Positions 15,831 to 30,441 of a DNA stretch of 64,000 bases are shown here, in pieces. Made by a program: the position numbers and the translations under genes. Numbering within the stretch: the first letter of the stretch is position 1; each line of letters starts with the position of its first letter. The stretch comes from Methylobacter sp. (GTDB lineage: Bacteria > Pseudomonadota > Gammaproteobacteria > Methylococcales > Methylomonadaceae): NCBI RefSeq assembly GCF_030680395.1, contig NZ_JAUXVR010000041.1:124001-188000 (forward strand), written 5' to 3'. The notes beneath the pieces are model-generated. The model worked only from the letters and a program-made list of their open reading frames with translations. It was not told the origin of the DNA and did no database searches.

Positions 15831-15870
15831 ACACATCGTTCACAACAGCAATAACGGATTATTTATCAGC

Positions 15871-16665: not shown

Positions 16666-16810
16666 CCGGTTCCGCCTGCTTTATTTACATGGCTTGTGGC
16701 TCGAGACGCCAAAGTATAAAGCATCGCCTCGCCACCTAGCTGATGGTCAACGCCTGATGATCACTGCATTACGCACACTAAACAATGCAAACCAACTCTT
16801 TATTATGAAC

Positions 16811-16951
16811 TTAACCTTGCCGTGAGATATGCCGATTATAATCTTGCTGAAAAAACAGATTATTCGTCAGTAAAACAAAAAGCTGGAAAAAGGCGGCTCC
16901 GGCTATCGCAAAAAGAGAGGCCAGTAAAACTATTCCTGTGATAATTTTCAT
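16811..16951 (-). CDS. Possible 46-residue single-pass membrane protein
   Basis: A short frame beginning MKIITGIVLLASLFAIAGAA and continuing with a second hydrophobic stretch rich in F and L, then a charged tail ending ISRQG. The first 30 residues would make one transmembrane helix or a signal-anchor. GGTAA lies upstream at a workable distance but is weak. No homologue is recognised. It sits alone in an 800-base gap between a transglutaminase-like gene (+) and a ferredoxin reductase gene (-). Hydrophobic composition and an ATG start support it; conservation would have to be shown. Confidence 0.35.
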   Translation of the reverse strand: MKIITGIVLLASLFAIAGAAFFQLFVLLTNNLFFQQDYNRHISRQG

Positions 16952-17464
16952 AATTAGTTACCAAATATTTGTTTAATTTGAGCGCGAATAATCCTCCCGT
17001 TAAATAAGCAAAACAAGTGATTTAATTATTAATTAAATAAAAGGAAGCCAAGCATTTCAGCACCTTGACCTGTGTCCAGCCTGCCCGTTGTTAGCTCGCA
17101 ACAGCCTTTTTAACCTCGATATTAGCTGCTAAAGAGGTCCTTATTATTGATATTCCGTGCAGATATATAAACAGGTGGATTTTGACCGCTTTGTCTGCTT
17201 TTTTGTGTAAAAGCAACAGAATAATCAGTCGCTATTCAGCAAGAAATTATTACTTTAATACAGACAGGATGCTGATAATAACCGCAACAATTGCCGGGCG
17301 TGTTAGCTCTGCTTTATCAGACTCATTCATGCCAATTGAAGCATTAGCTGCCGGCTCTGGCAGCTAAGCCATGAATCGCATGCATGTTACGCAAGCGCCC
17401 ATACGGACTACCTGCCTGATACTTTAAATAAAAAACGGCTTATGTCGGTTATGAGCGGCATTGT
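16952..17464. other. Intergenic region with an isolated hairpin
   Basis: No convincing gene. A perfect 9-bp hairpin (TTAGCTGCC/GGCAGCTAA, 17344-17367) is the only strong structure and may end transcription of the reductase gene coming from the right, though it lacks a T-run. A 61-codon plus-strand frame at 17182-17367 runs into this hairpin and has no ribosome-binding site at its first ATG. Confidence 0.45.
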
Positions 17465-18436
17465 TCAGCTCGGTGAGGCCAAAAAAGCATCCGCGTAAAT
17501 ATCGGCCGATGCCGCGCCTTTGAGAAAGGTCATTTTTTTCATTTGGTTGACCATTTCAGGATGACCGCAGAGAAATACGCGCCAACCTTTTAAATCTGTC
17601 AGCGAAGACAACGCAACTTCGTTGACACGTCCGTGACCAAATCCTTCAGGAACATGATGGCCTGATACGCAAGGGACGTAATGGAAATTTTCATGCTGCC
17701 TGCTAAGTTGGCGCATCTCATCAATCCGGTAAAGATCTTCAACTTCACGACTGCCATGAAACAGATAAATGGGACCGGAGTGACCATGTGCAAGTGCATC
17801 GGTCAGAATACCCGCCAATGGCGCCAAGCCTGTTCCCGTTCCTACCAGGAGTATGCCTTGATCGCTTCTTTCCGGCAGATAAAAACAGTGTCCGCGCGGT
17901 TCGGATACGGCTACGGTATCCCCTACCTTAAGCTCATCATGTAGCCATTCACTAAACCTGCCATTGGCTAGCCTACGAATGTGAAATTCCAAAGTATTGG
18001 ATTCTTGCGGAGTATTGGCAATCGAATAGCTGCGCGTTAATCCATCGGGTCTTTGCAAATTAACAAATTGTCCGGCGTTAAATTCAAATGCATCCTTAAA
18101 AGCTATGATCAACAGCAGCGTATTTCTATTGAGCATTTCGTTGGCAACAACGGTTCCCTGGGTATAGAACTCCGATTGATCGGGCAGTTTAATCACCATG
18201 TCCTGTTCCGGATGACACAGGCAGGCAAGAAAGTGATTATGTTTTTTCAGCGTATTCTTTAAACCGGCCTGAGCGGCTTGCGGCGGTAAGATATCGGGAC
18301 TGCGCACCATGCAACTGTGACAGGTACCTTTTTTACAGGCGTAGGAAATATTAACATTTTCGCGTAATAACGCATCCAGCACTGTTTCATCCGGTTGACA
18401 AGAATAAGTGTTTTCTTCAATCGTTAATTTATACAT
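17465..18436 (-). CDS. 2Fe-2S ferredoxin-type flavin reductase
   Basis: 323 residues with an N-terminal plant-type [2Fe-2S] domain (CKKGTCHSCM near 34-43 and a fourth Cys in LACLCHPEQ near 72), an FAD-binding barrel (RSYSIANTP near 140-148) and an NAD(P)-binding domain (LLVGTGTGLAPLAGIL near 200-215; FLCGHPEMV near 294-302). This order is that of the reductase components of oxygenases such as MmoC, BenC or toluene monooxygenase reductases. No oxygenase is encoded nearby. Instead a truncated haemoglobin gene lies 65 bases upstream on the same strand, so it may reduce that haemoglobin in NO or oxygen chemistry. The usual electron path would be NAD(P)H to FAD to 2Fe-2S. Confidence 0.9.
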   Translation of the reverse strand: MYKLTIEENTYSCQPDETVLDALLRENVNISYACKKGTCHSCMVRSPDILPPQAAQAGLKNTLKKHNHFLACLCHPEQDMVIKLPDQSEFYTQGTVVANEMLNRNTLLLIIAFKDAFEFNAGQFVNLQRPDGLTRSYSIANTPQESNTLEFHIRRLANGRFSEWLHDELKVGDTVAVSEPRGHCFYLPERSDQGILLVGTGTGLAPLAGILTDALAHGHSGPIYLFHGSREVEDLYRIDEMRQLSRQHENFHYVPCVSGHHVPEGFGHGRVNEVALSSLTDLKGWRVFLCGHPEMVNQMKKMTFLKGAASADIYADAFLASPS

Positions 18437-18501
18437 GATTCTACCGTTAAACCCGACTCCATAATGCCCAATAAAACATCATGGAGCAGCGTTGTTTTTG
18501 T

Positions 18502-18903
18502 TTATCTGCCTAATACATCGTTGCGAGTAGTTTCACAAATCGCCACCACTTCGGTAATGAGTTCCTGCGGGACATTTAACTCTTCCAAAGTTGCTCCCAA
18601 ATTTTCTACAACTGCGTCGAAATGACTGTCATCCAAGCCCATCTTAAGCAGGTGTGCATGACCTTTACGCATGTCCTCCCCTGTATAATTATGCGGACCG
18701 CCAAATGCCATCGTCAAAAAAGATTTTTGTTTGGCTGCTTGTTTTTCCATGTCAACGTTGTCGAAAAAACGGTTGATACGGTCGTCACTCAGAACCTTGC
18801 GGTAAAAAATATCAACGGCTGCATTGACCGCCGGTTCCCCACCTATTCTTTCGTAAAGAGGTTTACTCATGATTCCTTCCCCATTGTTTTGTGTGTCAGT
18901 CAT
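18502..18903 (-). CDS. Truncated haemoglobin, group 1
   Basis: A small haem protein of about 133 residues. The 2-on-2 fold pattern is visible: PLYERIGGEPAVNAAVDIFY at the start, FFDNVDMEKQAAKQKSFL in the middle, and KGHAHLLKMG with the proximal His. Two starts have good ribosome-binding sites: ATG 18903 (AAGGAA) and ATG 18870 (GGGAAGGA); the family alignment begins at the second. The further upstream extension to 18960 is not supported. Group 1 members bind O2 and often detoxify NO. A ferredoxin-type reductase gene follows directly and could keep the haem ferrous. Confidence 0.9.
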   Translation of the reverse strand: MTDTQNNGEGIMSKPLYERIGGEPAVNAAVDIFYRKVLSDDRINRFFDNVDMEKQAAKQKSFLTMAFGGPHNYTGEDMRKGHAHLLKMGLDDSHFDAVVENLGATLEELNVPQELITEVVAICETTRNDVLGR

Positions 18904-19335
18904 TATTATTTCCTTAGCTGTTATATCGCCTGCGGTTGGCGACGAGGAAAAGAATATCAAGTTAACGCACCTTATACAACTTAAATATGTTAAAACTTAT
19001 TTTTAAGTTTTAATTAATGTCCGTTGCTATACATCCAAACTTTGGAACGGACTAAAAAAGAATTTTTATGACTAACGAGATAAGACCACAGCAGCAGGGT
19101 CCTGTGGGTATTTTTGCTTTGACAGAAGCAGGAATTAACAGCTTCCCGAAACAATGCCTGATTTTTTGAACTCATTCTTAGTGAATACCCCTGTCCCTAT
19201 TCCGCTTCAGCTTCTGTTCAGCGAACAAAGCGCATTTTAGCCATGGCTTACAGAAATTATTGCTTATCAAGCCGAGAAACTTATCTGTATTACACCAAAT
19301 TTTGTATATCAGTCAGCGAGACAGGAAGGTAAAAG
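18904..19335. other. Divergent intergenic region between haemoglobin and a small-protein gene
   Basis: About 430 bases, AT-rich, carrying the upstream regions of the haemoglobin gene (-) and of the small gene at 19336 (+). A 33-codon frame at 19066 lacks a ribosome-binding site and is not called. No clear operator was identified. Confidence 0.4.
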
Positions 19336-19512
19336 ATGATTAACCATAATTTCGATACGTATAGTGATATTGTCGCTCCCATGAATCAGGCTTTTGATAA
19401 TGGCAATTTTTATGGACTGGAATATATCCTTGACGAGTTGATTAGTGAAAAGCCGACGCCTGCAAGTCAAAATACGGTAGATTGGTTTGGCGCTACCGAT
19501 TATTTCGCTTAA
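19336..19512 (+). CDS. Small acidic hypothetical protein (58 residues)
   Basis: ATG 19336 is preceded by AGGAAGG, the best ribosome-binding site in this area, five bases before the start. The product starts MINHNFDTYSDIVAPMNQAF and ends with DWFGATDYFA; it is acidic, soluble and rich in aromatic residues and Asn. It is not recognised. A stand-alone gene with such a strong site, flanked by long non-coding stretches, is likely real and well expressed. A 61-codon frame overlapping its end (19482-19667) is the less likely reading. Confidence 0.6.
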   Translation: MINHNFDTYSDIVAPMNQAFDNGNFYGLEYILDELISEKPTPASQNTVDWFGATDYFA

Positions 19513-19907
19513 ATATTTTCAATTTCCGAATCATGCTTCGGATAGAGCGTAATCTCGCTCATGACAAGAAAATGAACGTAATTACCATAGAACAATCGGA
19601 ACGGTTCTTTAGAATATATAGGGTTTTGAGGTGTGACTTAACATTCGATTGCCACTTCAGTAACTAACGCGTTGGACAATGCGACATACGCTTTACAGGA
19701 TGGATTTTGATGCTCTTTACTGGCAATATTTGAGATTAACTGACGGTGTAAACGAAGCAGATTGAAATCATCCGATTCAACAAGATGATTAAGGGTCGTG
19801 TTAATAACAGTTAAAGTTAGTCGACTTTAATTTATTACAGACTTTGATTGAACTTTTGAAGCCAAACTGCGGCACAGATAATTGTGCCGCCGCATGTAAT
19901 TTATAAC
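19513..19907. other. Intergenic region
   Basis: Nearly 400 AT-rich bases between the small acidic protein gene and the end of the cold-shock gene. No frame with a convincing start and no strong hairpin was found. Confidence 0.4.
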
Positions 19908-20123
19908 TTAGCTGATGACGCTTACATTTTCAGCTTGTGGGCCTTTTTGGCCTTGCGCTACGCTGAACTGTACTTTTTGGCCTTCATCCAGCGATTTGTA
20001 GCCGCCGGAGTTATTGATTTGTTGAAAATGTACGAAAACATCGGGGCCTGATTGCTGCTCGATAAAACCGAAGCCTTTATCAGAATTAAACCATTTAACG
20101 ATGCCAGTAGTAATTGTAGACAT
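19908..20123 (-). CDS. Cold-shock domain protein (CspA family)
   Basis: A 71-residue single-stranded nucleic acid-binding protein with both RNA-binding motifs, KGFGFIEQ (RNP1) and DVFVHF (RNP2), and the N-terminal [15 protein letters not shown] 20123 has AGGA seven bases upstream; the frame reading back to 20174 is untranslated leader. Csp proteins melt RNA structure and act as RNA chaperones. It is monocistronic, with about 450 bases of leader and promoter region shared with trhO, which is divergent. Which cold-shock paralogue it is cannot be told. Confidence 0.95.
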
Positions 20124-20460
20124 AATGAGTCCTATAAATATTTGAATATAAAAAGCCTTAAAAAGGCGGGTCAAGCCGGTAAATTTGAAAATTACAAAAT
20201 GAAAAACAGGACGAGGAACTACAGAAGATACATCGAAATGGTAAGCAGAGGGTAAATCTTATTTTCAAGCTGGGTGCAGTATGGTCTTCTCGACACTATG
20301 AGTCAAGGTATATTTTTTCAATACGTGTAATATTTACCATGATTGCATTTATGAGTTGAATCCAGGAACATTCATATCGTTTAACGTCAGGGCTATTAAT
20401 ATACTTCCCCGCGTTTCCCATAAATTAATTTTAAAAAGATTTAGTGTTATCATTCAACTG

Positions 20461-20558
20461 TTTCTTTGAGAACCTTTTCTCAAAGAAATTCTCTACTTTT
20501 CAGGAAGCTACTTTCCTGGAAGTCTATCGTTTTCATCTGCACCGGATTTACGTTCCGG
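20461..20558 (+). promoter_or_regulatory. Three successive hairpins in the trhO leader
   Basis: Immediately before trhO there are a perfect 12-bp hairpin (20461-20472 with 20477-20488, loop CCTT), a 7-bp hairpin (20501-20518, CAGGAA/TTCCTG) and a 5-bp hairpin (20542-20558, CCGGA/TCCGG). The ribosome-binding site AAGGA follows at 20567. The row of stems could control trhO by attenuation or by masking; the first could simply be a terminator of upstream transcription. Confidence 0.45.
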
Positions 20559-20577
20559 CTCGCAACAAGGAATAATA

Positions 20578-21555
20578 ATGTCTCACATAGTCGTTTGTGC
20601 TCTGTACAAATTTGTCACCCTGAAAAATTATCAGGCTTTGCGCCAACCCCTTCATGATGTCATGGAAGCCAACCAGATTCGCGGCACCTTGTTGCTGGCC
20701 GGCGAAGGCATCAACGGCACGATAGCCGGATCACGCCAAGCCATCGACACCGTGCTGGATTGGTTGCGTAACGACCCGCGTCTGGCGGATATCGATCATA
20801 AGGAATCGCTGACCGACAAATTACCTTTCAACCGCGCCAAGGTTAAACTCAAAAAAGAGATCGTGACGATGGGCGTCGAAGGCATCGACCCTAAACGCGT
20901 AGTGGGCACTTATGTCAGCCCCAAAGACTGGAACAAACTGATCTCCGATCCTGATGTGATACTGGTGGATACCCGCAACGACTACGAATATCAAGTCGGC
21001 ACCTTTAAAAACGCCATTAACCCGAATACAACCAGCTTTCGCGAATTTCCCCAGTACATTAAAGAAAACCTCGACCCCGAAAAACACAAAAAAGTGGCGA
21101 TGTTCTGCACCGGCGGTATCCGCTGCGAAAAATCGACAGCCTTTTTAAAAGAACAGGGCTTTGACGAGGTTTATCATCTCAAAGGCGGCATATTAAAATA
21201 TCTGGAAGAAGTTCCCGCACAAGAAACGCTTTGGGAAGGCGAATGCTTTGTTTTTGACGACCGGGTAACGGTTAATCTCCAACTTGAAAAAGGCAACTAC
21301 GACCAATGTAACGCCTGCCGCCTGCCCATCACCGAAACCGACAAAGCCAGCGAACACTATCAGCAAGGTGTTAGCTGCCCTCATTGTTACGATAAAATCA
21401 CGGCCGAGCGGAAAACCCGTTTCATGGAGCGTGAAAAGCAAATGGAATTAGCCAAAAAACGCGGCGAGGCGCATATCGGCGCAGATGCCGCCAAAACGCT
21501 GGTGCAAAAACGCGTAGCCAAACTGCAACGGCGGCAGCGAGCATTAGAGGAGTAA
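20578..21555 (+). CDS. trhO: tRNA uridine(34) hydroxylase TrhO (YceA family, rhodanese domain)
   Basis: Catalyses oxygen-dependent formation of 5-hydroxyuridine at wobble position 34 of certain tRNAs. The 325-residue protein has the YceA N-terminal domain ([14 protein letters not shown] near 38-51) and a rhodanese domain ([14 protein letters not shown] near 125-138; active-site loop [11 protein letters not shown] near 178-188). Cys in TGGIRC is the rhodanese catalytic position. The C-terminal part has paired cysteines (CNACRLP, CPHCYDK) that look like a zinc site. ATG 20578 has AAGGA. It precedes a convergent RNA-repair operon; several nearby genes also act on tRNA (rtcB, selU, selD). Confidence 0.94.
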
Positions 21556-21599
21556 AACGAAAAACAACCGTTTTAGCAAGAATACCTCAGTTGTAGCGC

Positions 21600-21657
21600 T
21601 TCAAATCTAACCTGACAATTACTGATTTTTAGAAGTATTTTTCAGATTGGGTTTGAA
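21600..21657. terminator. Imperfect inverted repeat between trhO and the slipin gene
   Basis: TTCAAATCTAACCTGA (21600-21615) and TCAGATTGGGTTTGAA (21642-21657) can form a 16-position stem with several mismatches around a T-rich loop. It lies between convergent genes and could terminate both. Evidence is structural only. Confidence 0.35.
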
Positions 21658-21673
21658 CCACTACGCATAAGTG

Positions 21674-22831
21674 CTATCTGCTCCTCTCAGTCAAGCGCAC
21701 CATATCATTCATCACGCCCTCCAAACCGCCGTAAACGTTCAGCGTGTTAATACGGCCGGTGATTTTTTCTAATATCTCCAGCTCTTTCAACCGCAACAAC
21801 ACGGGGTTGCCTTCCATGACTTTTGCTGTGTTATGCAAAGAACGCGTGGCCTGGGTTTCTTCCTGACGCTTGATTAAATTCGCTTCGGCGAGTTTTTGCG
21901 CCTCAACCACTTGGGTCAAAATCGCCTTCATTTCACCGGGCAGGACAATATCGCGCGCACCGACGGTTTTTACTTCGATACCATAAACGGCCGCTTTTCC
22001 GGCGACGATCGTTAACACCTGCGTGTTCAAAGAGTTTTTATCGGCTAACAGTTCATCCAACGTTTGCGTGCTGACAACCGTCCGCAACGCCAATTGCAAT
22101 TCGCGGTACAAATAATCCTTGGCATCGGCCAGCTCGGCTTTAACCACTTCGGCATGCTTAATCTGCCAGGTTGACGACAAATTCACCCGCAAACTCACGC
22201 GGTCTTTGGTCAAAATCTCCTGGCCGTTGACTTCCATGTTTTGCAAACGGCTATCGAATAACGTGACGGCGATATTGCGGTTAAACCGCCACCAAACATG
22301 CGTGCCCGACTTTAATGTTGCGACCGTTTCGCCATCCACCGTCAAAAATCCCAGATGATTTTCCGGCACTGTCGCTACGACTATCGCTCTCAAAGCGGCA
22401 CAACGTAACATGTCTTCTTTGGCATTCGCCAATAAGGCCGCTAGTTTCTTGGGCACGGTAAAGTCCTGGCTGATGTCCAGCTTGTCCACATGTATCTCTT
22501 GCTGAGTTTTCCAGTAAGCGCCGCGTTGCCCGGGAGCTTTTATGTCTTTTAGAACATTTTTTTGATAAACCAGACCGACTTCCTGCTCGCCCGTTTCCCA
22601 TTGCGTCATCACCTCGGCGAACGCATCCGGATGTAATTGCGCCAAGTGCAGCAAGTCTTTACCGATCTCTTCCTGCAAGGTGTTGGTCAGGGTGACTGTC
22701 TGAACCTGGTATTGATCGAACCAATCCCAAAATCTATAGACACCGGCGGGTAATATTTTTAAAAATTGCTGCTCTTTGAACAACAAGCCTTTTTGCGTTT
22801 CCGCGATTATTATTTTTTTGATTAAACGCAT
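21674..22831 (-). CDS. Slipin (SPFH/band 7) protein of the RNA repair operon
   Basis: 385 residues of the stomatin/prohibitin (SPFH) superfamily. Typical features: N-terminal MRLIKKIIIAETQKGLLFKE, GTHVWWRFNRNIAVTLFDSR, the band-7 core LTKDRVSLRVNLSSTWQI, and the helical tail AQKLAEANLIKRQEETQATR that usually oligomerises. There is no obvious transmembrane helix, unlike classical stomatins. ATG 22831 is chosen because AAGGAG precedes it; an extension to 22885 is not supported. SPFH genes occur with rtcB in several bacterial RNA-repair operons. Here the gene is the last of the operon rtcB - tRNA-like RNAs - slipin. Its job in RNA repair is unknown; a scaffold for RtcB or for the tRNA-like RNAs is a guess. 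Confidence 0.88.
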   Translation of the reverse strand: MRLIKKIIIAETQKGLLFKEQQFLKILPAGVYRFWDWFDQYQVQTVTLTNTLQEEIGKDLLHLAQLHPDAFAEVMTQWETGEQEVGLVYQKNVLKDIKAPGQRGAYWKTQQEIHVDKLDISQDFTVPKKLAALLANAKEDMLRCAALRAIVVATVPENHLGFLTVDGETVATLKSGTHVWWRFNRNIAVTLFDSRLQNMEVNGQEILTKDRVSLRVNLSSTWQIKHAEVVKAELADAKDYLYRELQLALRTVVSTQTLDELLADKNSLNTQVLTIVAGKAAVYGIEVKTVGARDIVLPGEMKAILTQVVEAQKLAEANLIKRQEETQATRSLHNTAKVMEGNPVLLRLKELEILEKITGRINTLNVYGGLEGVMNDMVRLTERSR

Positions 22832-22947
22832 TGCTGTCTCCTTAAAATTAAAGTGATAAAGCCTCCGCACAGCCACCGGCTCCAAGCCTTATGGCGAGCG
22901 GGCAAACCCACGCTTGCTGTTTGCGCGCCCGTCAGACCCGGCCCAAA

Positions 22948-23007
22948 GGCAGTGTCTGTGCTGATGTCAGGCGACCATGACATGAAGACAGACAAACCGC
23001 ATCTGCC
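22948..23007 (-). ncRNA. Long imperfect hairpin in the leader before the slipin gene
   Basis: Nested stems: GGCAG (22948-22952) with CTGCC (23003-23007), TGTCTGT (22953-22959) with ACAGACA (22988-22994), and ATGTCA (22964-22969) with TGACAT (22978-22983), closed by an eight-base loop. Together with the GCCC-TTTC-GGGC hairpin at 23049-23060 (a GAAA tetraloop on the transcribed strand) and a CTACC/GGTAG hairpin at 23074-23090, the 250 bases between the tRNA-like RNAs and the slipin start look like a structured RNA. It could be a Y-RNA-like tail or a processing or protective element. No frame is conserved in appearance here. Confidence 0.45.
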
Positions 23008-23090
23008 TGCACGCAACTGCCGCCTTCAATCGGGAGGCCCTATCTAATGCCCTTTCGGGCTTTGCTTTTCAAGCTACCTTGGAAGGGTAG

Positions 23091-23163
23091 TTTCACTAGC
23101 CGGATTCGAACCGGCTACAAACTGATTAACCGTCAGTTGCTCTACCTGGATGAGCTATAGTGA
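23091..23163 (-). tRNA. tRNA-like RNA 2 (Asn-like body, abnormal loop)
   Basis: A cloverleaf can be drawn on the minus strand. D arm GCTC/GAGC; anticodon stem ACTGA/TCAGT (5 bp); T arm GCCGG-TTCGAAT-CCGGC (perfect). The acceptor pairs only six bases (TCACTA/TAGTGA). The loop CGGTTAA would carry anticodon GTT (Asn), and stem and loop resemble tRNA-Asn, but base 33, nearly always U, is G. No CCA follows; the end reads A-A-C-T. It begins directly after the CCA of tRNA-like RNA 1. It may be a degenerate tRNA or a non-decoding mimic. It lies within the rtcB-slipin operon. Confidence 0.6.
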
Positions 23164-23239
23164 TGGAGCTGCCAGTTGGATTCGAACCAACGACCTACCG
23201 AGTAATCTCGGACGCTCTACCTGACTGAGCTATGGCAGC
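23164..23239 (-). tRNA. tRNA-like RNA 1 with a shortened anticodon loop
   Basis: Minus-strand cloverleaf with a perfect 7-bp acceptor (GCTGCCA/TGGCAGC), discriminator T and encoded CCA. It has a 4-bp D arm (GCTC/GAGC) with the GG of the D loop, and a T arm GTTGG-TTCGAAT-CCAAC. The anticodon arm is abnormal: CCGA/TCGG encloses only six bases (GATTAC), or CCGAG/CTCGG a four-base ATTA loop. The seven-base loop needed for decoding is missing. Selection on the rest of the molecule is suggested by the intact pairing elsewhere. Its position between rtcB and the slipin gene, same strand, suggests a role in RNA repair rather than translation. Confidence 0.65.
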
Positions 23240-23349
23240 GTTATTTGACACCGTCTCAACACCGATACGCACATGTCCTACAAGGTTTGCGTCAGTCAGG
23301 CGTTTTGAACCTGAACCGCTGGTGTTGTTGGTATGTCAAATTCTTGTTT

Positions 23350-23375
23350 GCGTTGCCTATGGTTCGCGGCAACGC
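23350..23375. repeat. Perfect 8-bp hairpin
   Basis: GCGTTGCC (23350-23357) pairs with GGCAACGC (23368-23375) around a ten-base loop. It lies between the rtcB end and tRNA-like RNA 1 and might mark a processing point or partial terminator inside the operon. Confidence 0.45.
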
Positions 23376-23394
23376 TGAATATATTTATTATGCT

Positions 23395-23502
23395 GGTTCC
23401 CAAGCTCCAGCTTGGGAACCCAGTCTTGGAAGCTCCAGCTTCCTGTCCCGCAAAGCTGGAGCTTCGCCTCGCTAATTCCCAAGCTAGAGCTTGGGAATTA
23501 GC
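23395..23502. repeat. Cluster of CCAAGCT/AGCTTGG palindromes, copy A
   Basis: Four palindromes in a row: GGTTCCCAAGCT... at 23395-23420, GGAAGCTCCAGCTTCC at 23428-23443, AAGCTGGAGCTT at 23453-23464, and a 32-base palindrome at 23471-23502. The same ordered arrangement recurs at 35687-35790, so it is a dispersed repeat unit of about 105 bp. It lies just after the rtcB stop. Confidence 0.8.
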
Positions 23503-23527
23503 GAACCTAGAAGGTCTAAGTTCGGTT

Positions 23528-24751
23528 TTAACCTTTCACACAAACCACTTGTTTCAACGTATGCACAATTTCAACCAAATCCGCCTGCGCCGCCATGACC
23601 GCTTCAATGGGCTTGTAGGCGGAAGGCGTTTCATCGATCACGGCTTCATCTTTACGGCATTCCACCCCTGCCGTGGCTTGAATATGCTCGGCCAAGGACA
23701 CCAGTTTTTTCGCTTGGGTGCGCGACATAACCCGCCCTGCGCCGTGGCTGCAACTGCAAAAACTTTCTTCGTTACCCAAGCCGCGCACGATGAATGATTT
23801 AGCACCCATGCTGCCCGGAATAATCCCCATTTCGCCCAGCTTGGCACTGACCGCGCCTTTCCGGGTAACCAGCACGTTTTTATCATAATGATGTTCACGG
23901 CTGATGTAGTTGTGATGACAGTTGACCGCTTCCAGCTCTGCGCTAAACGGTACAGGCAACACCTCCCGCATTGCTGCTAACACGTTGTTCATCATCATGA
24001 TCCGGTTGGCAAGCGCAAAATCCTGCGCCCAGCTCACCGCTTCCAGATAGCTTTTAAAATGCTCGCTGCCTTCGGGAATGTAGGCCAAATCTTTATCGGG
24101 CAGATGGATAAACCAGCGTTCCATATCTTTTTTAGCCAGCTCGATAAAATGCGTACCGATCCGGTTGCCGACGCCGCGCGAACCGCTATGCAACATCACC
24201 CACACCGCATCCGCCTCATCCAGGCAAATCTCGATAAAATGGTTGCCGGTTCCCAAGGTACCCAAATGATTGAGGTTGTTGGTATTTTTCAAGCACGGAT
24301 GTTTTTCGCACAAGCGTTGAAAACCCTCGCTTAGCGGTAACCATGCTTGCACAACGTCTTCAGGCGCTTGCCCCCAACTGCCGGTATCGCGCACTTTAAA
24401 ATTGGCAACGCGGCCATGCGGCACTCGTTTTTCAATCTCACTGCGTAACGCGGTCAACGAATCGGGCAGTTGCGAGGCGCTTAACGTGGTTTTAGTCGCC
24501 ATCATGCCGCAGCCCAAATCCACACCGACCGCAGCAGGAATCACCGCGCCGACGGTAGGAATGACGCTGCCGATCGTCGCGCCTTTACCCAGATGAACAT
24601 CGGGCATTACCGCTATCCATTTGTGAATAAACGGCAGTCCGGCGATATTCAGCAATTGTTGCCTGGAGTTTTCATCAAAGCTTACGCCGCGTGTCCATGC
24701 CTTAATAGGGTGTTGACCTTGTTGGTGTAAGACTTCGTAGGAGCTAGTCAT
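23528..24751 (-). CDS. rtcB: RNA ligase RtcB (3'-phosphate/5'-OH ligase)
   Basis: Joins RNA 3'-phosphate or 2',3'-cyclic phosphate ends to 5'-OH ends using GTP and Mn, restoring cleaved RNAs such as tRNAs. The 407-residue protein has the metal site DLGCGM, the GTGNHFIE and MLHSGSRGVGNRIG motifs, and the guanylylated His in CSCSHGAGRVMSR. ATG 24751 is chosen: AAGGAATC precedes it, family members start MTSSYEVLH-like, and the start lies about 30 bases after the sigma-54 promoter. The frame back to 24814 would run through that promoter. It heads an operon with two tRNA-like RNAs and a slipin; rtcA (RNA cyclase) is absent. Confidence 0.96.
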   Translation of the reverse strand: MTSSYEVLHQQGQHPIKAWTRGVSFDENSRQQLLNIAGLPFIHKWIAVMPDVHLGKGATIGSVIPTVGAVIPAAVGVDLGCGMMATKTTLSASQLPDSLTALRSEIEKRVPHGRVANFKVRDTGSWGQAPEDVVQAWLPLSEGFQRLCEKHPCLKNTNNLNHLGTLGTGNHFIEICLDEADAVWVMLHSGSRGVGNRIGTHFIELAKKDMERWFIHLPDKDLAYIPEGSEHFKSYLEAVSWAQDFALANRIMMMNNVLAAMREVLPVPFSAELEAVNCHHNYISREHHYDKNVLVTRKGAVSAKLGEMGIIPGSMGAKSFIVRGLGNEESFCSCSHGAGRVMSRTQAKKLVSLAEHIQATAGVECRKDEAVIDETPSAYKPIEAVMAAQADLVEIVHTLKQVVCVKG

Positions 24752-24790
24752 GATTGATTCCTTGAGTTTGTTTACTAACGATTTGTATAG

Positions 24791-24806
24791 AGCAAGCCTT
24801 GTGCCA
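24791..24806 (-). promoter_or_regulatory. Sigma-54 (-24/-12) promoter of rtcB
   Basis: Read on the minus strand the site is TGGCACAAGGCTTGCT. It matches the sigma-54 consensus TGGCAC-N5-TTGC with exact spacing. Transcription would begin around 24780, about 30 bases before the rtcB ATG at 24751. The divergent gene rtcR encodes the matching sigma-54 activator, so regulation of rtcB by RtcR is strongly suggested. Confidence 0.88.
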
Positions 24807-24855
24807 AACCGCATGTAAGCGATTCACTGCCATTACGTTAAGAAGACAAGGCACA

Positions 24856-24937
24856 GTAGGAGCGGGCCGCGCCCGCGATATTTGCGAGGCGATTGCAGAC
24901 TTGCAGATCCTTCATCGCGGGCATGGCCCGCTCCTAC
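24856..24937. repeat. REP/BIME-like inverted repeat
   Basis: The arms GTAGGAGCGGGCC...GCCCGCGAT and ATCGCGGGC...GGCCCGCTCCTAC are inverted copies separated by about 35 bases. It resembles the GTAGGAGCG-type extragenic palindromes of gammaproteobacteria. It sits in the rtcB-rtcR divergent region, upstream of the sigma-54 promoter, where activator-binding sites are expected. Confidence 0.8.
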
Positions 24938-25023
24938 AGTTGCTCAGCTAGAGTAGATTTACAACGCCCAAGAAGCTAAACTCCAGGTAAATAATTTATC
25001 AATATAGATACCGGATTATCAAA

Positions 25024-26616
25024 ATGGATACAGTCATCATCGGCATTTTAGGATCCCGCCTGGATCACGGCGGTTTGGGTAGCAGACGGCACGAACGTTG
25101 GCGGCCCAGCATCTCGCTATTGATGCACGACAACCTTCCCGTCGATGAGTTTGTGTTGATTTACCATGCCGATGAACAGCAGCTCGCCACCTTGACGCTC
25201 AACGATATGGCGGCGATGTCTCCGCAAATACGGCTGACACCGTATCAAGTCGATTATGAAAACCCTTGGGACTTCGAACAGGTTTACAGCCAGCTGCACG
25301 AATTCACCCGCAGCTATCATTTCGATCCCGAGCAGCATGATTATTATGTCCACATCACGACCGGCACCCATGTCGCGCAAATCTGCCTGTATCTGCTGAC
25401 CGAAGCCAACTACATTCCGGCCAAGTTGCTGCAAACCTCGCCGAGCAAGGAAGGCGTGCACGGTTGTTATCAAGTCATCGATTTGGATTTATCGCGCTAC
25501 GATCAAATTGCCTCACGCTTTGCCCGCGAAGCCCAGGACGGCATCGCTTATTTAAAAGGCGGCATAGCAACCCATAATCCTGCGTTTAATAATCTGATTT
25601 CCCAACTGGAACATGTCTCGATCAAATCGTCGGCGCCGATGTTATTAACAGGCCCGACAGGCGCAGGAAAATCGCGTCTGGCAAAACGCATTTACGAGCT
25701 GAAAAAACAGCGCGGTTTGGTGACCGGAAAATTGGTGGAAGTCAACTGCGCGATCTTGCGCGGCGATAACGCGATGTCGGCTTTATTCGGGCATGTGCGG
25801 GGCGCTTATACCGGCGCGATGAATCAGCGCATGGGCTTATTGCGCGAGGCCGATAAAGGCTTGCTGTTTTTGGATGAAATCGGCGAATTGGGTCTGGACG
25901 AGCAAGCCATGCTGCTGCGCGCCATTGAAGATAAAGTGTTTATGCCGTTGGGCAGCGATCGGGAAGTCGGCAGCGATTTTCAATTGATAGTCGGGACTAA
26001 CCGCGACTTGTTCGAACAAGTACAACGGGGATTGTTTCGGGAGGATTTGTTGGCGCGAATTAATTTATGGACCTATCAACTGCCCTCGTTAAAACAGCGC
26101 ATCGAAGATTTAGAGCCCAATATTGAACACGAGCTGCAACAATTTACTATCAAGGCAGGCTATAAAGTCAGTTTTAATAAAGCCGCACGCGAACAGTATT
26201 TAAAATTTGCGCGTTCGACGCAGGCGCTATGGCGAGCGAATTTCCGGGATTTAAACTCCAGCATTACCCGCATGGCAACTCTGGCAACGGGCGGGCGCAT
26301 TACCGAAGAACTGGTGACCGAAGAAATCGGCCGCTTGCAGTATGCATGGTCCGGTTTCGGGCAACCAGCGCCGGTTGACGATGGACTTGCCGGCGTGTTG
26401 TCAGCGCAAGCCTTGGCGGAAGTGGATTTATTTGATCGTTTGCAACTTACCGAAGTGGTGCGCGTATGCCGAGCCAGCCGCAGCTTAGCCGAGGCGGGAC
26501 GGGTATTGTTCAATCATAGCCGTACTCAAAAAGCCAGCGCCAATGACTCGCACCGGCTTAAGCAGTATTTACAGAAGTTTGGCTTGGAATTTCAGGCTAT
26601 TGTAAAAAGCATCTAA
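25024..26616 (+). CDS. rtcR: RtcR, sigma-54-dependent activator of RNA repair genes
   Basis: 530 residues. The N-terminal RtcR domain (about 1-180) is related to CARF-type Rossmann sensors and is thought to sense RNA ends or damaged tRNA; GILGSRLDHGG marks its start. The central AAA+ domain has Walker A GPTGAGKS near 214, the sigma-54 contact loop GAYTGA near 263 (usual GAFTGA) and Walker B LLFLDEIGEL near 282. The C-terminus has a helix-turn-helix-like SLAEAGRVLFNHSR region. It is divergent from rtcB, which has a matching sigma-54 promoter. Its own promoter is presumably in the same 270-base gap, which also holds a REP element. Confidence 0.95.
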   Translation: MDTVIIGILGSRLDHGGLGSRRHERWRPSISLLMHDNLPVDEFVLIYHADEQQLATLTLNDMAAMSPQIRLTPYQVDYENPWDFEQVYSQLHEFTRSYHFDPEQHDYYVHITTGTHVAQICLYLLTEANYIPAKLLQTSPSKEGVHGCYQVIDLDLSRYDQIASRFAREAQDGIAYLKGGIATHNPAFNNLISQLEHVSIKSSAPMLLTGPTGAGKSRLAKRIYELKKQRGLVTGKLVEVNCAILRGDNAMSALFGHVRGAYTGAMNQRMGLLREADKGLLFLDEIGELGLDEQAMLLRAIEDKVFMPLGSDREVGSDFQLIVGTNRDLFEQVQRGLFREDLLARINLWTYQLPSLKQRIEDLEPNIEHELQQFTIKAGYKVSFNKAAREQYLKFARSTQALWRANFRDLNSSITRMATLATGGRITEELVTEEIGRLQYAWSGFGQPAPVDDGLAGVLSAQALAEVDLFDRLQLTEVVRVCRASRSLAEAGRVLFNHSRTQKASANDSHRLKQYLQKFGLEFQAIVKSI

Positions 26617-26716
26617 CCGGCCATGACAGCTCACAACGCCCTCTTCCAGCGTAGCAAGAAGATCGCCAGCCGTTTCTGTTATATTAAGGCGAATTCTTGC
26701 TGACCATAATTTCAAT

Positions 26717-27823
26717 ATGAACCACCCTACCCTTCCCGCTGCCGAAGCTTTTAGCCTGCTTAGTACCAATAAACAAGTAACTATGATCGATGTAAGGTCG
26801 GAGGGAGAATATGAAAAAGCGCACTTTGCAAACACGCTAAACATCCCGATACTTTCAGACGCCCATCGCCATGATGTGGGACTGACCTATAAGACCGAAG
26901 GCTCGGAAGCCGCCAAAGCGCTTGGGCACAAACTGGTCAGCGGCGATTATAAAGAGCGAATGATTCAGCAATGGTGCGAATCGATTAAAAGCCATCCCCG
27001 GCATCCCGCTTTGATCTTTTGTTGGCGCGGCGGCCTACGCTCCCGGTTAGCCCAGGATTGGGTCTATCAAAACGGGCTTGAAGTTTTACGGGTCGATTCC
27101 GGCTACAAAGGCTTAAGGCATGAGGCGCTTAAGGCCATAGAAAATCCCGCGCCCTTTGTCGTCCTGTCCGGCATGACCGGATCGGGCAAAACCCGCTTAA
27201 TCCATCAGCTCCGGCACTTTGTCGATCTTGAAGCGCTTGCCGATCATCGCGGCAGCGCTTTCGGAGCCTATGTTGGCAGAAGCCAGCCCCAGCAAGCCAC
27301 GTTTGAAAACAAGTTGGCGCAATCGTTATATCAAATTGCCGATAACTTTGTGCTGGAGGATGAAAGCCCCAATATCGGCCGATGCCATGTGCCTGACCTG
27401 TTTTATGCCCGGATGGTCCCTGCGCCGATGGTGATGATCGAAACACCGGCCCGGGTTCGGGCATTGGAAATCTTTAAGGAATATGTCCAAGCGCCTTTTG
27501 CAGGCGGCATGCCGTTACCCGAACTGGAAGCAAGTTTTGCCAAAAATGTTGAACGGATCAGGAACAAGCTGGGCGGCATGGAGTGCGATAACATTAAGAC
27601 CATGCTGAGCCAATCGTTCCAATTCGATGTGCTGAATGAGGCTTATGCAGACGCTTATCTCGACTGGATTGAGCGCCTGCTGACGCATTATTACGACAAA
27701 CTGTATATCCATTCGCTGTCATTAAAATCACGGAAGACCTTGTTTAAAGGCTGCTGGCAAGACTGTTTGGATTTTTTAGCCGATTCTCAAGAAAGAACAT
27801 TCCATCAAAAACTTGATCGGTAG
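26717..27823 (+). CDS. selU: tRNA 2-selenouridine synthase
   Basis: Replaces sulfur with selenium in 2-thiouridine at tRNA wobble position 34 using selenophosphate, via a geranylated intermediate. The 368-residue protein has an N-terminal rhodanese domain (TMIDVRSEGEYEKAHF near 22-37, catalytic Cys102 in IFCWRGGLRSR) and a P-loop domain (LSGMTGSGKTRLIHQL near 150-165). No ribosome-binding site stands out before ATG 26717. selD, the selenophosphate supplier, follows after a repeat-filled gap. There is no selA, selB or tRNA-Sec in the window, so selenium may be used only for tRNA. Confidence 0.95.
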   Translation: MNHPTLPAAEAFSLLSTNKQVTMIDVRSEGEYEKAHFANTLNIPILSDAHRHDVGLTYKTEGSEAAKALGHKLVSGDYKERMIQQWCESIKSHPRHPALIFCWRGGLRSRLAQDWVYQNGLEVLRVDSGYKGLRHEALKAIENPAPFVVLSGMTGSGKTRLIHQLRHFVDLEALADHRGSAFGAYVGRSQPQQATFENKLAQSLYQIADNFVLEDESPNIGRCHVPDLFYARMVPAPMVMIETPARVRALEIFKEYVQAPFAGGMPLPELEASFAKNVERIRNKLGGMECDNIKTMLSQSFQFDVLNEAYADAYLDWIERLLTHYYDKLYIHSLSLKSRKTLFKGCWQDCLDFLADSQERTFHQKLDR

Positions 27824-27850
27824 GAAAATATGGTCCACACAAGTCAAGAT

Positions 27851-28110
27851 CGTCATTCCGGCATGGATGGAGTTGAGATTACCATCCATGACACTGGATA
27901 CCCGCTCCCGGCGGACATAAATATCTCCACAAATTTTTTGTATTATAAATACAATAAGTTACAAGCCGACCTAGCTCCCTCTCCTGCTGGAGAGGGTTGG
28001 GGTGAGGAGAATAAAAATAACCGTTTATATCCCCCTCATCCCAACCTTCTCCCTCAAGGGAGAAGGGGCCGGTACTTGTGTAAACACTTGTGCCCGGCGG
28101 GTATGACGAG
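27851..28110. repeat. Nested palindromic repeats between selU and selD
   Basis: The outer pair begins CGTCATTCCGGCATGG (27851) and ends CCCGGCGGGTATGACG (to 28109), an inverted CGTCAT...CC motif. Inside is a second element: CTCCCTCTCCTGCTGGAGAG and GGTTGGGGTGAGGAG (27975-28009) inverted against the CCCCTCATCCCAACC arm up to 28066. The arrangement looks like one dispersed repeat inserted in another. A 105-codon frame across it (27830-28147) is not a gene. Confidence 0.7.
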
Positions 28111-28139
28111 TTTGAGCATAATCGGACTCATACATCTGC

Positions 28140-30410
28140 ATGAATAACAACTCAACCCCGATAGTTTCAGACCTGGTCTTGCTCGGCGGCGGGCATGCCA
28201 ACATTCAGGTCTTGAAAATGCTGGCCATGAATCCGATTGGCGGGCTTAGGATTACTTTAATATCCGACCAAACGCATTCGCCATACTCCGGCATGATACC
28301 CGGCTACTTGGCGGGCTATTATTCCTATGAAGAATGCCATTTCGATTTAAGACGCATCTGCGAAGAACTCGGCCAGCGCTTTATCAAGGCCAACATCATC
28401 GGCATCGATCCGCAACGAAAAAAAATCCGGCTGGAAAACAGGGTGGAAGTCGGTTACGACTGCGCGTCCATTAACGTCGGCATAGCCCCTAAAAGCCTAG
28501 AAAACTCATCAGAAGAAGCGGCGTTAAAGCTTATCCCGCTTAAACCGATTTCCAGGTTTATCGCACACTGGGAGCGGTTGATCGCCGACCTGAAAGCTTA
28601 CAAAGGTAGCAAATCTCTACAGATCGCCGTTGTTGGCGCCGGTGCATCCGGCGTTGAAATATCGATTATCCTGAAAATGTTGATCGACCAACATAACTGG
28701 AATGCCGAAGTGAGCCTTATCCACCGACATGAATTCCTGGTTTCAGCCAAAGATATTTCAGCCCAAAGAAGACTGTCAAAAACGCTTAAAGAGCTGGACA
28801 TAAAAGTCTTTAAAAACACCCAGGCGCTTAAAGAACAGGAAAACGGCCTGATGCTTAAAGACGATAAAGGACTGATCCAGACGAAAGATTTTTATCGGGT
28901 GCTGACGGCTACGCAAGCCGCCGCGCCGCAGTGGTTTAAAGACTCGGGACTGCCGGTGAGCCCGGACGGTTTTGTAAAGGTCAACAAAAACCTGCTGGTT
29001 GAAAACGAACACGACCTGTTTACCGCCGGAGATTGCATACATTTTTCGCCGTCCCCGTTGAAAAAGGCCGGCGTTTATGCGGTCCGGCAAGGCATGGTGC
29101 TTGAGCACAATATCCGCGCCTATTTCACCGAAAAACCCGCGTTAAAAACCTTTCATCCCAAGAAAAATGTGCTGTCTTTGATCACTATAGGCGAGCGTAA
29201 AGCCTTGGTGCATCAAGACAGCGCATCAATCCTCAGATGGATGTGGCCTTCATTATTGTGGACGGTTAAGGACGGCATCGACAGGCGCTTTATGAAGCGC
29301 TTCCAGGCCAGGACTTTCAGCGTAAAGCCCCGGCATTTCGATAAAACCATGCCAGTGCCCAAGACCACGCTGGTCCCCGAAGATTGGGAAAGCAACACCT
29401 GCGGCGGCTGCGGCAGCAAGCTTGGTGCCTCCACGTTAATGCAAAGCCTGAACAAGCTGGACATACCCACAGACGACGCCGTTTTGCTGGGCGTCAAGGA
29501 TGGCGAAGACTGCGCGTTGACCCGGCTTTCCGAGCATAGCCTGTGCCTGCAAAGCATCGATCAATTCCGCTCGTTTATTTCAGACCCTTACTTGCTGGGG
29601 CAAATTGCCACCCAGCATGCATTAAGCGACATCTACGCGATGGGCGGCGTTGCCAAGACCGCGCAAGTCGGCCTGACGCTCGGTGCTGCAAACAAGAAGA
29701 TTCAGCAGGAAGATATTTTTCAACTGATGTCGGGCGTGCTGAATATTCTGAGCCAAAGCGCCGCCTCCCTGGTCGGCGGCCACACCGGCGAAGGCGCGGA
29801 GCTTGCCATTTCGCTTGCCGTCCAGGGCGAAGTCGCGCCGGAACAGGTTTTAAGAAAACAGCTCACTCAACCCGGAAACCGGCTGATACTGACCAAATCC
29901 ATCGGCACCGGCGTAATCTTCGCCGCCAATATGCTGGCCCAGGCCAACGGCAAACTGGTGGATCAGGCGCTTTCAAGCATGCTGCAATCCAACAAAACCG
30001 CGATGGAAATCATCAAGTCCTTTAGCGTTTCCGGCTGCACCGATATTACCGGCTTCGGCCTGCTAGGCCATGCCTTTGAGATGATGGGGAAAAATACCGA
30101 TCAGGCTTTGGGCGTTAAAATCGACTACAAGGCGATCCCCTTATTCGACGGTGTTGACGAATTATTTGTCAAAGGCTATTACGCTTCTATTGCCGAGGAA
30201 AATTATCGGTCTTTAAGCGCAGTATTGGATGCCGAGATAAGTAATCAAAAGTTTCCGGCGCTGTTCGATCCCCAAACCAGCGGCGGGCTGTTGTTTTCAG
30301 TGCCTTTCGATCAGGCGGATTCATGCCTGAAAGCTCTGCATCAAAACGGTGTAGCCAAGGCCTGTGTTATAGGCGAAGTTATTGATCAGCGGAAAATAGT
30401 CGTGTTTTGA
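28140..30410 (+). CDS. selD: NADH-dehydrogenase-like / selenophosphate synthetase fusion
   Basis: 756 residues in two parts. Residues about 1-395 form a pyridine nucleotide-disulfide oxidoreductase of the NDH-2-like type: LVLLGGGHANIQVLKML near 11-27 (FAD site), IAVVGAGASGVEIS near 161-174 (NAD site), and LFTAGDCIHF near 296. Residues from about 415 are SelD, with TCGGCGSKLGAS carrying Cys where others have selenocysteine; later VGGHTGEGAE, GCTDITGFGLLGH and FDPQTSGGLL are typical of the AIR-synthase-like fold. SelD makes selenophosphate from selenide and ATP. The fused oxidoreductase may supply or reduce selenium. No ribosome-binding site is obvious. It follows selU, its likely consumer. Confidence 0.95.
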   Translation: MNNNSTPIVSDLVLLGGGHANIQVLKMLAMNPIGGLRITLISDQTHSPYSGMIPGYLAGYYSYEECHFDLRRICEELGQRFIKANIIGIDPQRKKIRLENRVEVGYDCASINVGIAPKSLENSSEEAALKLIPLKPISRFIAHWERLIADLKAYKGSKSLQIAVVGAGASGVEISIILKMLIDQHNWNAEVSLIHRHEFLVSAKDISAQRRLSKTLKELDIKVFKNTQALKEQENGLMLKDDKGLIQTKDFYRVLTATQAAAPQWFKDSGLPVSPDGFVKVNKNLLVENEHDLFTAGDCIHFSPSPLKKAGVYAVRQGMVLEHNIRAYFTEKPALKTFHPKKNVLSLITIGERKALVHQDSASILRWMWPSLLWTVKDGIDRRFMKRFQARTFSVKPRHFDKTMPVPKTTLVPEDWESNTCGGCGSKLGASTLMQSLNKLDIPTDDAVLLGVKDGEDCALTRLSEHSLCLQSIDQFRSFISDPYLLGQIATQHALSDIYAMGGVAKTAQVGLTLGAANKKIQQEDIFQLMSGVLNILSQSAASLVGGHTGEGAELAISLAVQGEVAPEQVLRKQLTQPGNRLILTKSIGTGVIFAANMLAQANGKLVDQALSSMLQSNKTAMEIIKSFSVSGCTDITGFGLLGHAFEMMGKNTDQALGVKIDYKAIPLFDGVDELFVKGYYASIAEENYRSLSAVLDAEISNQKFPALFDPQTSGGLLFSVPFDQADSCLKALHQNGVAKACVIGEVIDQRKIVVF

Positions 30411-30441
30411 TTAGTCAGCGATAATGCAAGTCTTATAATCC

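What the first reader, a model, noticed from the sequence alone, without database searches (positions are those of the whole stretch)
23091..23239. Two tandem tRNA mimics inside an rtcB-slipin RNA-repair operon
Seen in the sequence: adjacent minus-strand cloverleaves lie between rtcB and the slipin gene. RNA 1 has a perfect 7-bp acceptor with CCA and good D and T arms, but its anticodon loop is six (or four) bases. RNA 2 has a tRNA-Asn-like body with G at position 33 and no CCA. Both keep the parts a tRNA-binding protein would recognise and lose those needed to decode. Known: RtcB rejoins cleaved RNA, and RtcR carries a CARF-like domain linked to tRNA-derived ligands. Inferred: they are co-induced substrates, decoys, or sensors that report nuclease attack.
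Basis: partly seen in the sequence, partly recalled or inferred. Interest (0 to 1): 0.9.

Follow-up and report, generated by a model that had tools for sequence, protein, structure and literature searches.

The report
tRNA-shaped RNAs preceding a slipin gene
Next to an RNA-repair gene, this methane-oxidiser-like bacterium carries two RNAs that keep the tRNA body but have lost what is needed to read codons; the same element precedes one kind of membrane-protein-like (slipin) gene in many bacteria, so it is probably that protein's partner RNA rather than a tRNA or a nuclease alarm.

Summary
Two minus-strand cloverleaves lie at 23239-23167 and 23164-23091 (Rfam tRNA 55.7 and 52.1 bits). RNA1 has a 6- or 4-nt anticodon loop; RNA2 has G33 and no CCA. 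The 43 other tRNAs found in the genome all have 7-nt loops and T33, tRNA-Asn(GTT) among them. They are not drifting pseudogenes: cloverleaf pairs hold in 94% of cells with strong covariation.

The element follows the slipin (SPFH/Band-7) gene, not rtcB. R2, a model of it, hits upstream of slipin in 93 of 96 slipin loci. Among 45 rtcB stretches without slipin, the only such pair is in one where slipin is deleted. It is part of a larger structured leader: a second conserved domain, unmatched in Rfam, lies immediately 5'. A sigma-54 site precedes the leader in 15 of 22 loci with RtcR adjacent.

Anticodon arms vary freely, some closed by GNRA or UUCG, while the elbow is nearly invariant: poor evidence for a nuclease bait. 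Best reading: cognate scaffold RNA of slipin in RNA repair, a kind predicted by Burroughs and Aravind 2016 (recalled; echoed in a 2026 preprint).

The parts
23167..23239 (-). tRNA-like RNA1: 7-bp acceptor, normal D and T arms, 6- or 4-nt anticodon loop; T-CCA follows (to 23164)
   Evidence: (R2 72.8 bits; the window copies were among R2's seeds)
23091..23164 (-). tRNA-like RNA2: Asn(GTT)-like anticodon loop with G33, 1:72 mismatch, no CCA
   Evidence: (R2 79.9 bits; seed)
23243..23341 (-). 5' structured domain ('pre-motif'): long closing helix, AGCGG..CAGG-loop-CCTG hairpin, GACGCA/TGCGTA helix
   Evidence: R1 hit 23251-23333, 51.3 bits (seed); covariation; fold; no Rfam match over it
23074..23090 (-). 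hairpin CTACC..GGTAG directly after RNA2; CTGCC..GGCAG in L040
   Evidence: by eye on the alignment of 6 relatives
22856..23060 (-). 3' leader domain: GCCCGAAAGGGC hairpin (23049-23060) and outer helix GGCCTCC (about 23032-23041) with GGAGGCTTT (about 22857-22866) just ahead of the slipin Shine-Dalgarno; by-eye pairing, not tested statistically
   Evidence: alignment of 6 relatives
21674..22831 (-). slipin (start ATG at 22831 is my choice): Band_7/SPFH at 155-326 of the 386-residue query, preceded by two further five-strand beta units in the model (my reading); no obvious TM helix by eye
23528..24751 (-). rtcB RNA ligase (start ATG at 24751 is my choice, downstream of the sigma-54 site)
   Evidence: Pfam RtcB 3.6e-130
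24792..24806 (-). sigma-54 promoter-like site TGGCACAAGGCTTGC, about 40 nt before the rtcB start
   Evidence: scan of relatives
25024..26616 (+). rtcR (divergent): RtcR domain plus sigma-54 interaction domain
   Evidence: Pfam RtcR 1.4e-72

Best explanation
The two RNAs are the tRNA-elbow part of a composite non-coding RNA that belongs to the slipin (SPFH/Band-7) protein. When cleaved tRNAs activate RtcR (known for Salmonella RtcR, Hughes 2020), the sigma-54 operon makes RtcB, the leader RNA and slipin together (sigma-54 site seen; induction inferred). The leader carries a conserved 5' hairpin domain and one to three or more tRNA-shaped modules. Slipin oligomers would bind the elbow modules and so form a ribonucleoprotein scaffold for damaged tRNA, RtcB or their handling enzymes, much as Ro60/Rsr uses the tRNA-mimicking Y RNA in the alternative form of the same operon. 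Decoding parts are lost because only the elbow is read. Shown: conservation, covariation, linkage to slipin, freely varying anticodon arm. Inferred: binding to slipin, scaffolding, processing.
For: Linkage: R2 hit upstream of slipin in 93 of 96 loci and in 17 of 20 further ones (L200's is 1.4 kb away). ARAGORN, which knows nothing of slipin, finds tRNA-likes in 18 of 21 slipin loci of relatives and 80 of 101 others. 14 of 14 slipin loci with about 4 kb on both sides and no rtcB or rtcR hit still have it. 45 rtcB stretches without slipin lack it except L037, where slipin and the 3' leader are gone and RNA2 has lost T-stem pairs by eye, though it still scores 54.4 bits. Structure: 94.0% paired against 67.3% shuffled, 370 two-sided changes against 110.9, covariation 0.692 against 0.172, 0 of 500. 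Elbow: 15 invariant columns, mainly in D and T arms; entropy 0.00 bits in the D stem, 0.37 in the T loop, 1.43 in the anticodon loop. Parallel: 3 of 56 rtcB loci carry Ro60/Rsr beside YrlA arrays and no slipin; no Rsr hit in 101 slipin loci. In one E. coli and one Citrobacter record the leader keeps a sigma-54-like site and a T-arm hairpin ahead of slipin.
Against: No transcript, binding or structure data. Location in the slipin 5' leader fits cis-regulation equally well. No RNA-binding domain is recognised in slipin. In E. coli and Citrobacter only a T arm is recognised (13.2 bits) and R1 finds nothing, which a cloverleaf-binding scaffold would not predict. Some 7-nt copies look like good tRNAs (56 of 78 keep T33). 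Acceptor columns vary even more than the anticodon loop (1.80 and 1.76 bits), although by paired changes. CM seeds came from 50 of the loci and the window; outside seed loci the R2 count is about 41 of 44 (my count). The shuffles do not remove shared ancestry. Slipin could lie off-contig in some of the 45 rtcB stretches (in G047, G068 and G071 it is on another contig).
Confidence: 0.5

Rival explanations
1. Cis-acting leader of the slipin mRNA: the 5' domain and tRNA-like modules set slipin expression, for example by recruiting RNase P, tRNA-modifying enzymes, RtcB or RtcA, or by folding that exposes the Shine-Dalgarno when tRNA is scarce or cut.
For: The element lies upstream of slipin on the same strand, usually starting 180-640 nt away; no terminator-like site at 22800-24900 in the window; in six relatives an outer helix ends just before the slipin Shine-Dalgarno (by eye).
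Against: The stretch between tRNA-like and start codon varies widely in length and, by eye, in sequence; the number of tRNA-likes varies; no alternative pairing that covaries was found by eye (no systematic search).
Confidence: 0.25
2. Bait, decoy or sensor for anticodon nucleases: cleaved copies would give 2',3'-cyclic-phosphate halves that feed RtcR, or spare real tRNAs.
For: RtcR CARF binds 5' tRNA halves ending in cyclic phosphate, and a decoy role was proposed for YrlA in Salmonella (PMC7790460, listing abstract and passages). Fast change of anticodons (26 different in 78 seven-nt loops) could reflect an arms race.
Against: Loops are 4, 5 or 6 nt in 33 of 115 copies, with GNRA or UUCG tetraloops in several loci; mini-modules lack an anticodon arm (by eye); slipin linkage is unexplained; in Salmonella no YrlA fragments were detected (PMC7790460).
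Confidence: 0.12
3. Ordinary or spare tRNAs for decoding during stress.
For: Arrays of ordinary-looking tRNAs sit near slipin in some loci (L120, L126, L132, L142, L177, L182, L202). In Anabaena a tRNA array and rtcB are under TrcR, and a slipin gene (alr0740) rises in the trcR mutant (PMC10272220, passages).
Against: The window copies lack T33 or a 7-nt loop; a genuine tRNA-Asn(GTT) exists (L230); anticodon loops differ among close relatives while the rest of the body changes little.
Confidence: 0.04
4. tRNA pseudogenes or integration scars.
For: Low identity to the genome's tRNAs and broken decoding features.
Against: Same place in many gamma- and betaproteobacterial loci with compensatory changes.
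Confidence: 0.02

Closest known systems
SPFH/Band-7 module with a cognate 'novel tRNA-like molecule' in RtcB RNA-repair systems (Burroughs and Aravind 2016, NAR 44:8525; abstract recalled, the paper is not held)
   Same: SPFH gene beside rtcB, preceded by a tRNA-like non-coding RNA, RNA-repair context
   Different: I could not read that paper, so whether it has the 5' domain, tandem or triple copies, tetraloop anticodon arms, mini-modules or the E. coli T-arm form is unknown to me
Rsr (Ro60) with YrlA Y RNA in rsr-yrlBA-rtcBA operons (Rfam RF02553)
   Same: tRNA-elbow mimic encoded in an RtcR/RtcB operon; D and T arms kept; the YrlA model reaches across RNA1's T arm and RNA2's D arm (29.5 bits)
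   Different: below the YrlA gathering score of 69; here the arms are in normal tRNA order, with an acceptor stem and an anticodon arm; no Rsr gene found
tRNA (Rfam RF00005)
   Same: cloverleaf, elbow nucleotides, score above gathering
   Different: no U33 or no 7-nt loop in the window copies, short or sealed anticodon arms in some relatives, frayed 1:72 and 2:71 pairs, often no CCA
Eukaryotic vault: major vault protein plus vault RNA
   Same: Foldseek matches of the slipin model to MVP (E 2.9e-10 to 1.5e-8); SPFH part after beta units; partner RNA; bacterial MVP homologues, operon ncRNAs and RtcB are linked in PMC13404743 (passages)
   Different: stomatin-type chains rank first; TM-score to MVP low (0.29-0.38 of the query); no Pfam vault family at E 0.1; two extra beta units against MVP's longer repeat (recalled)

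Membership tests
Functional tRNA | cloverleaf scoring above Rfam gathering | tested here: met
   55.7 and 52.1 bits, cut-off 29
Functional tRNA | 7-nt anticodon loop with U33 | tested here: not met
   RNA1 6 or 4 nt; RNA2 G33; 43 of 43 other tRNAs found comply
Functional tRNA | CCA end, encoded in this genome | tested here: inconclusive
   RNA1 yes (T-CCA), RNA2 no; 42 of 43 other tRNAs yes, one cut by a contig end
SPFH-cognate tRNA-like RNA (Burroughs and Aravind 2016, recalled) | tRNA-like RNA encoded beside an SPFH/Band-7 gene | tested here: met
   93 of 96 slipin loci, 17 of 20
SPFH-cognate tRNA-like RNA (Burroughs and Aravind 2016, recalled) | RNA-repair (RtcB) gene context | tested here: met
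   window: rtcB and rtcR adjacent; of 55 slipin loci with at least 3.9 kb on both sides 41 have rtcB
SPFH-cognate tRNA-like RNA (Burroughs and Aravind 2016, recalled) | binds the SPFH protein | not testable with these tools
   needs pull-down or structure
YrlA Y RNA (RF02553) | score above the family's gathering cut-off of 69 bits | tested here: not met
   29.5 bits
YrlA Y RNA (RF02553) | Ro60/Rsr gene in the operon | tested here: not met
   no Rsr hit in window 15001-32000; only L049, L054, L056 of 56 rtcB loci
SPFH/Band-7 (slipin) | Band_7 domain | tested here: met
   PF01145 2.3e-25; 11 of 11 alignment members
Major vault protein | Pfam vault repeat or shoulder family | tested here: not met
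   only Band_7 and Band_7_1 at E up to 0.1
RtcR regulon | sigma-54 -24/-12 site ahead of the operon | tested here: met
   window TGGCACAAGGCTTGC; 15 of 22 and 13 of 20 loci by gene order; 11 of 2200 mononucleotide shuffles of the first group

The most novel reading that the evidence does not exclude
Slipin and its leader form a bacterial vault-like ribonucleoprotein: a soluble SPFH cage with beta-repeat walls, loaded with its own composite RNA (5' hairpin domain plus one to three or more tRNA-elbow modules), made on tRNA damage to hold broken tRNAs for RtcB. The 5' domain is a new RNA class that marks this system across gamma- and betaproteobacteria, and the elbow module can shrink to a lone T arm, as in the slipin locus that about 30% of complete E. 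coli genomes carry.
Probability: 0.22. Interest if true: 0.88.

Novelty: new member of a known kind. Interest (0 to 1): 0.6.

Why it matters
It separates three ideas about operon-encoded tRNA mimics: the mimic follows the scaffold-type protein, not the ligase or the sensor. It gives a conserved, testable RNA domain that no Rfam 15 family matched in the loci scanned, and a possibly tractable form in E. coli: the slipin-plus-leader locus covers at least 80% of the query in 1,621 of 5,426 complete genomes. If slipin binds it, Ro60-Y RNA and slipin-tRNA-like RNA would be two interchangeable solutions in the same repair operon, and the vault comparison would become testable in bacteria.

Tried and rejected
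Rejected: pseudogene drift, ordinary tRNA, YrlA membership, phage carriage (no slipin hit at E 1e-10 in 50,697 phage records). A by-eye idea that RNA2's 3' acceptor strand pairs with the slipin leader tail was dropped because L040 changes one side only. The vault comparison stays a lead: the pdb_via library was not available and Foldseek TM-scores are low.

Misses. R1 found nothing in the E. coli and Citrobacter loci, in L051, L052 and the cut L085 among the slipin-bearing rtcB loci, and in 13 of 96 slipin loci. In some of those 13 (L163, L174, L183, L104, L105) a similar sequence is visible by eye; L095, L097, L098, L106, L124, L136 and L169 are damaged, fragmentary or cut by contig ends; L170 is the last. 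R2 misses are L106 (gene fragment), L136 (contig edge) and L170 (T-arm module only, by eye); L190, L203 and L206 (the last a weak slipin match). The simple pattern gave copies in 91 of 115 slipin loci; 23 are listed without (many of these R2 or ARAGORN do find) and one matched without a scorable loop.

Printed work: the listings showed no paper that I recognised as describing the leader; Burroughs and Aravind 2016 is not held, so I do not claim that it is unpublished.

Full report
OBSERVATION. The window belongs to a genome of 4.36 Mb in 49 contigs; its nearest named slipin loci are Methylobacter MAGs. ARAGORN and Rfam both find two adjacent minus-strand tRNA-like RNAs between rtcB and a slipin gene. 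RNA1 folds with 7 acceptor pairs and a 4-nt anticodon loop in the MFE (or 6 nt if the stem is placed as in a tRNA). RNA2 has a normal-length loop with G33, a 1:72 mismatch and no CCA. The 43 other tRNAs found in the genome (one search scored 150 of 203 candidates) all have T33 and 7-nt loops, including a tRNA-Asn(GTT). So these two are not needed for reading Asn codons and look unfit for decoding.

CONSERVATION IN THE OPERON. I searched rtcB in 200 relatives (102 with a match) and fetched 55 stretches, from the listed matches of 450 bits or more (many are diverged paralogues at about 57% identity; two matches of one genome share a stretch). In the window and 10 of these, slipin is present. In all 11 a tRNA-like RNA lies upstream of slipin, starting 330-541 nt before it (L085 is cut by the contig end and shows only a 3' part). 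In the 45 without slipin, the tRNA-like model R2 hits only L037, an ordinary tRNA-Pro about 6 kb from rtcB in L050, and weak matches (20.7-39.5 bits) in the YrlA-bearing L049, L054, L055 and L056. Some of the 45 stretches are short, and in G047, G068 and G071 slipin lies on another contig, with the element before it. In L051 and L052 the order is RtcR | tRNA-like, slipin, rtcB, so the element moves with slipin. L037 is informative: rtcB, the 5' domain and both tRNA-likes remain, slipin and the 3' part of the leader are gone, and RNA2 has lost T-stem pairs compared with L094, though it still scores 54.4 bits (by eye). This is one case.

BREADTH. Slipin of this type occurs in 21 of 247 relatives and in 22 of 369 genomes drawn from the class; both counts include the own genome. 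R2 finds the element upstream of slipin in 93 of 96 slipin loci and in 17 of 20 more. Some loci repeat, for example L103/L160 and L137/L194 (for the second). 50 of the loci and the window gave seeds to R2; by my count about 41 of the 44 loci without a seed are hit. ARAGORN, which is independent of this, finds tRNA-likes in 18 of 21 and 80 of 101 loci. Fourteen of 55 slipin loci with at least 3.9 kb on both sides have no rtcB or rtcR hit there, yet all 14 have the element; rtcB may lie elsewhere in those genomes.

STRUCTURE AND CHANGE. On 62 aligned copies the cloverleaf is paired in 94.0% of cells against 67.3% in shuffles, with 370 two-sided changes against 110.9 and covariation 0.692 against 0.172 (0 of 500; sliding the partners destroys it). 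These shuffles do not remove shared ancestry, and the count of pairs with a two-sided change (15 against 14.2) is not above chance. The D stem does not vary in the 61 copies with letters there, and the T stem is 99.7% paired. The acceptor is frayed at its end: 30 of 62 copies do not pair at 1:72. Entropy is 0.00 bits in the D stem, 0.37 in the T loop, 1.43 in the anticodon loop, and 1.80 and 1.76 in the two acceptor strands, which change in pairs. Among 115 copies found by a simple pattern in 91 of 115 slipin loci (obvious repeats dropped), anticodon loops are 4 (9), 5 (11), 6 (13), 7 (78), 8 (1) and 9 (3) nt. The 7-nt loops carry 26 anticodons, and 56 of 78 have T33. A few of these copies may be true tRNAs of nearby arrays, and the pattern's length limit leaves out some tetraloop copies. 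GAAA, GCAA, GCGA and UUCG tetraloops close the arm in Burkholderia-type and other loci, and in some lineages RNA1 is reduced to acceptor, stub hairpin and T arm (partly by eye).

THE 5' DOMAIN. Directly before the tRNA-likes lies a second conserved RNA. A model from 40 copies (R1) shows, with a closing helix that I added, three helices paired in 90.6% of cells against 67.4% shuffled, 217 two-sided changes against 76.1, and covariation 0.673 against 0.240. R1 hits 83 of 96 slipin loci (by my count 50 of the 63 loci without a seed) and, among 56 rtcB sources, 8 of the 11 with slipin plus L037 (not L051, L052, L085). Of 20 further slipin loci 17 are hit at E up to 0.003. Across 121 whole genomes 14 have a hit: eleven at slipin leaders, one at the L037 remnant, and two weak ones, E 5e-4 and 7e-4, that I did not follow (only 38 candidates per genome were scored). 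No Rfam family matched it in the window (E up to 5) or in L002-L030 (E up to 1). Beggiatoa-labelled L178 has three copies, each followed by tRNA-likes.

REGULATION. In 22 loci where RtcR is divergent and no rtcB lies between, 15 have TGGCA[ACT]-N5-T[CGT]GC between RtcR and slipin, ahead of the leader; near matches ending in TTGA, TTGT or ATGA are visible in six of the other seven (L144, L156, L175, L179, L186, L198; by eye). In 20 loci with rtcB first, 13 have the site before rtcB. The window is of the second kind. No terminator-like or sigma-70-like site was found at 22800-24900. Two REP-like palindromes, of a family with 46 places in the genome, lie between rtcB and the leader.

PROTEIN AND PARALLEL SYSTEM. 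Slipin is Band_7 by sequence. Its AlphaFold model (mean pLDDT 79.9, pTM 0.58) has, in my reading, two further five-strand units before the SPFH part. Foldseek ranks stomatins first and lists major vault protein. Three rtcB loci instead encode Ro60/Rsr beside YrlA arrays, and no Rsr hit is found in 101 slipin loci, whose flanks are at most about 4 kb. This either-or pattern fits the statement that I recall from the Burroughs and Aravind 2016 abstract, that TROVE and SPFH/Band-7 scaffolds come with Y RNAs and a novel tRNA-like molecule. I could not open that paper; a 2026 preprint cites it for bacterial MVP homologues and operon ncRNAs in RNA repair (passages). A Pseudomonas paper notes an SPFH gene (PaFlo8) inside the rtc locus (passage).

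E. COLI FORM. Slipin homologues in plasmid-collection records of E. coli and Citrobacter (39-41% identity) have a sigma-54-like site and, in place of the cloverleaves, a T-arm hairpin (GGGTTCGATTCCC). R1 does not hit there. The E. coli locus covers at least 80% of the query in 1,621 of 5,426 complete genomes; I did not read the leader in those genomes one by one.

CONCLUSION. I put scaffold RNA of a slipin ribonucleoprotein first (0.5), cis-regulation of slipin second (0.25), nuclease bait or sensor third (0.12).

Noticed in passing
L120, L126, L132, L142, L177, L182, L202: Arrays of several to 15 ordinary-looking tRNA genes lie within a few kb of slipin, as if spare tRNAs were kept with the repair genes.
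   Followed up: no
L049, L054, L055, L056: YrlA copies beside rtcB, in L049, L054 and L056 as arrays with Ro60/Rsr. The tRNA model matches across YrlA copy junctions and the YrlA model matches across tandem tRNA-likes, suggesting that the two could interconvert by circular permutation.
   Followed up: partly
window 23397-23418 and 23476-23497: REP-like palindrome TTCCCAAGCT..AGCTTGGGAA, 46 places in the genome at up to 2 mismatches, two of them between rtcB and the leader.
   Followed up: partly
L178 2321-2409, 2863-2950, 3407-3495: Three copies of the 5' domain, each followed by tRNA-like hits, upstream of one slipin gene.
   Followed up: no
L249 4634-5425, L250 4637-5422: A nucleotidyltransferase-domain gene follows slipin directly in E. 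coli and Citrobacter.
   Followed up: no
G053:C131:8413-8470 and G132:C7:167847-167911: Two weak 5'-domain hits (E 5.2e-4, 7.0e-4) whose surroundings were not examined.
   Followed up: no
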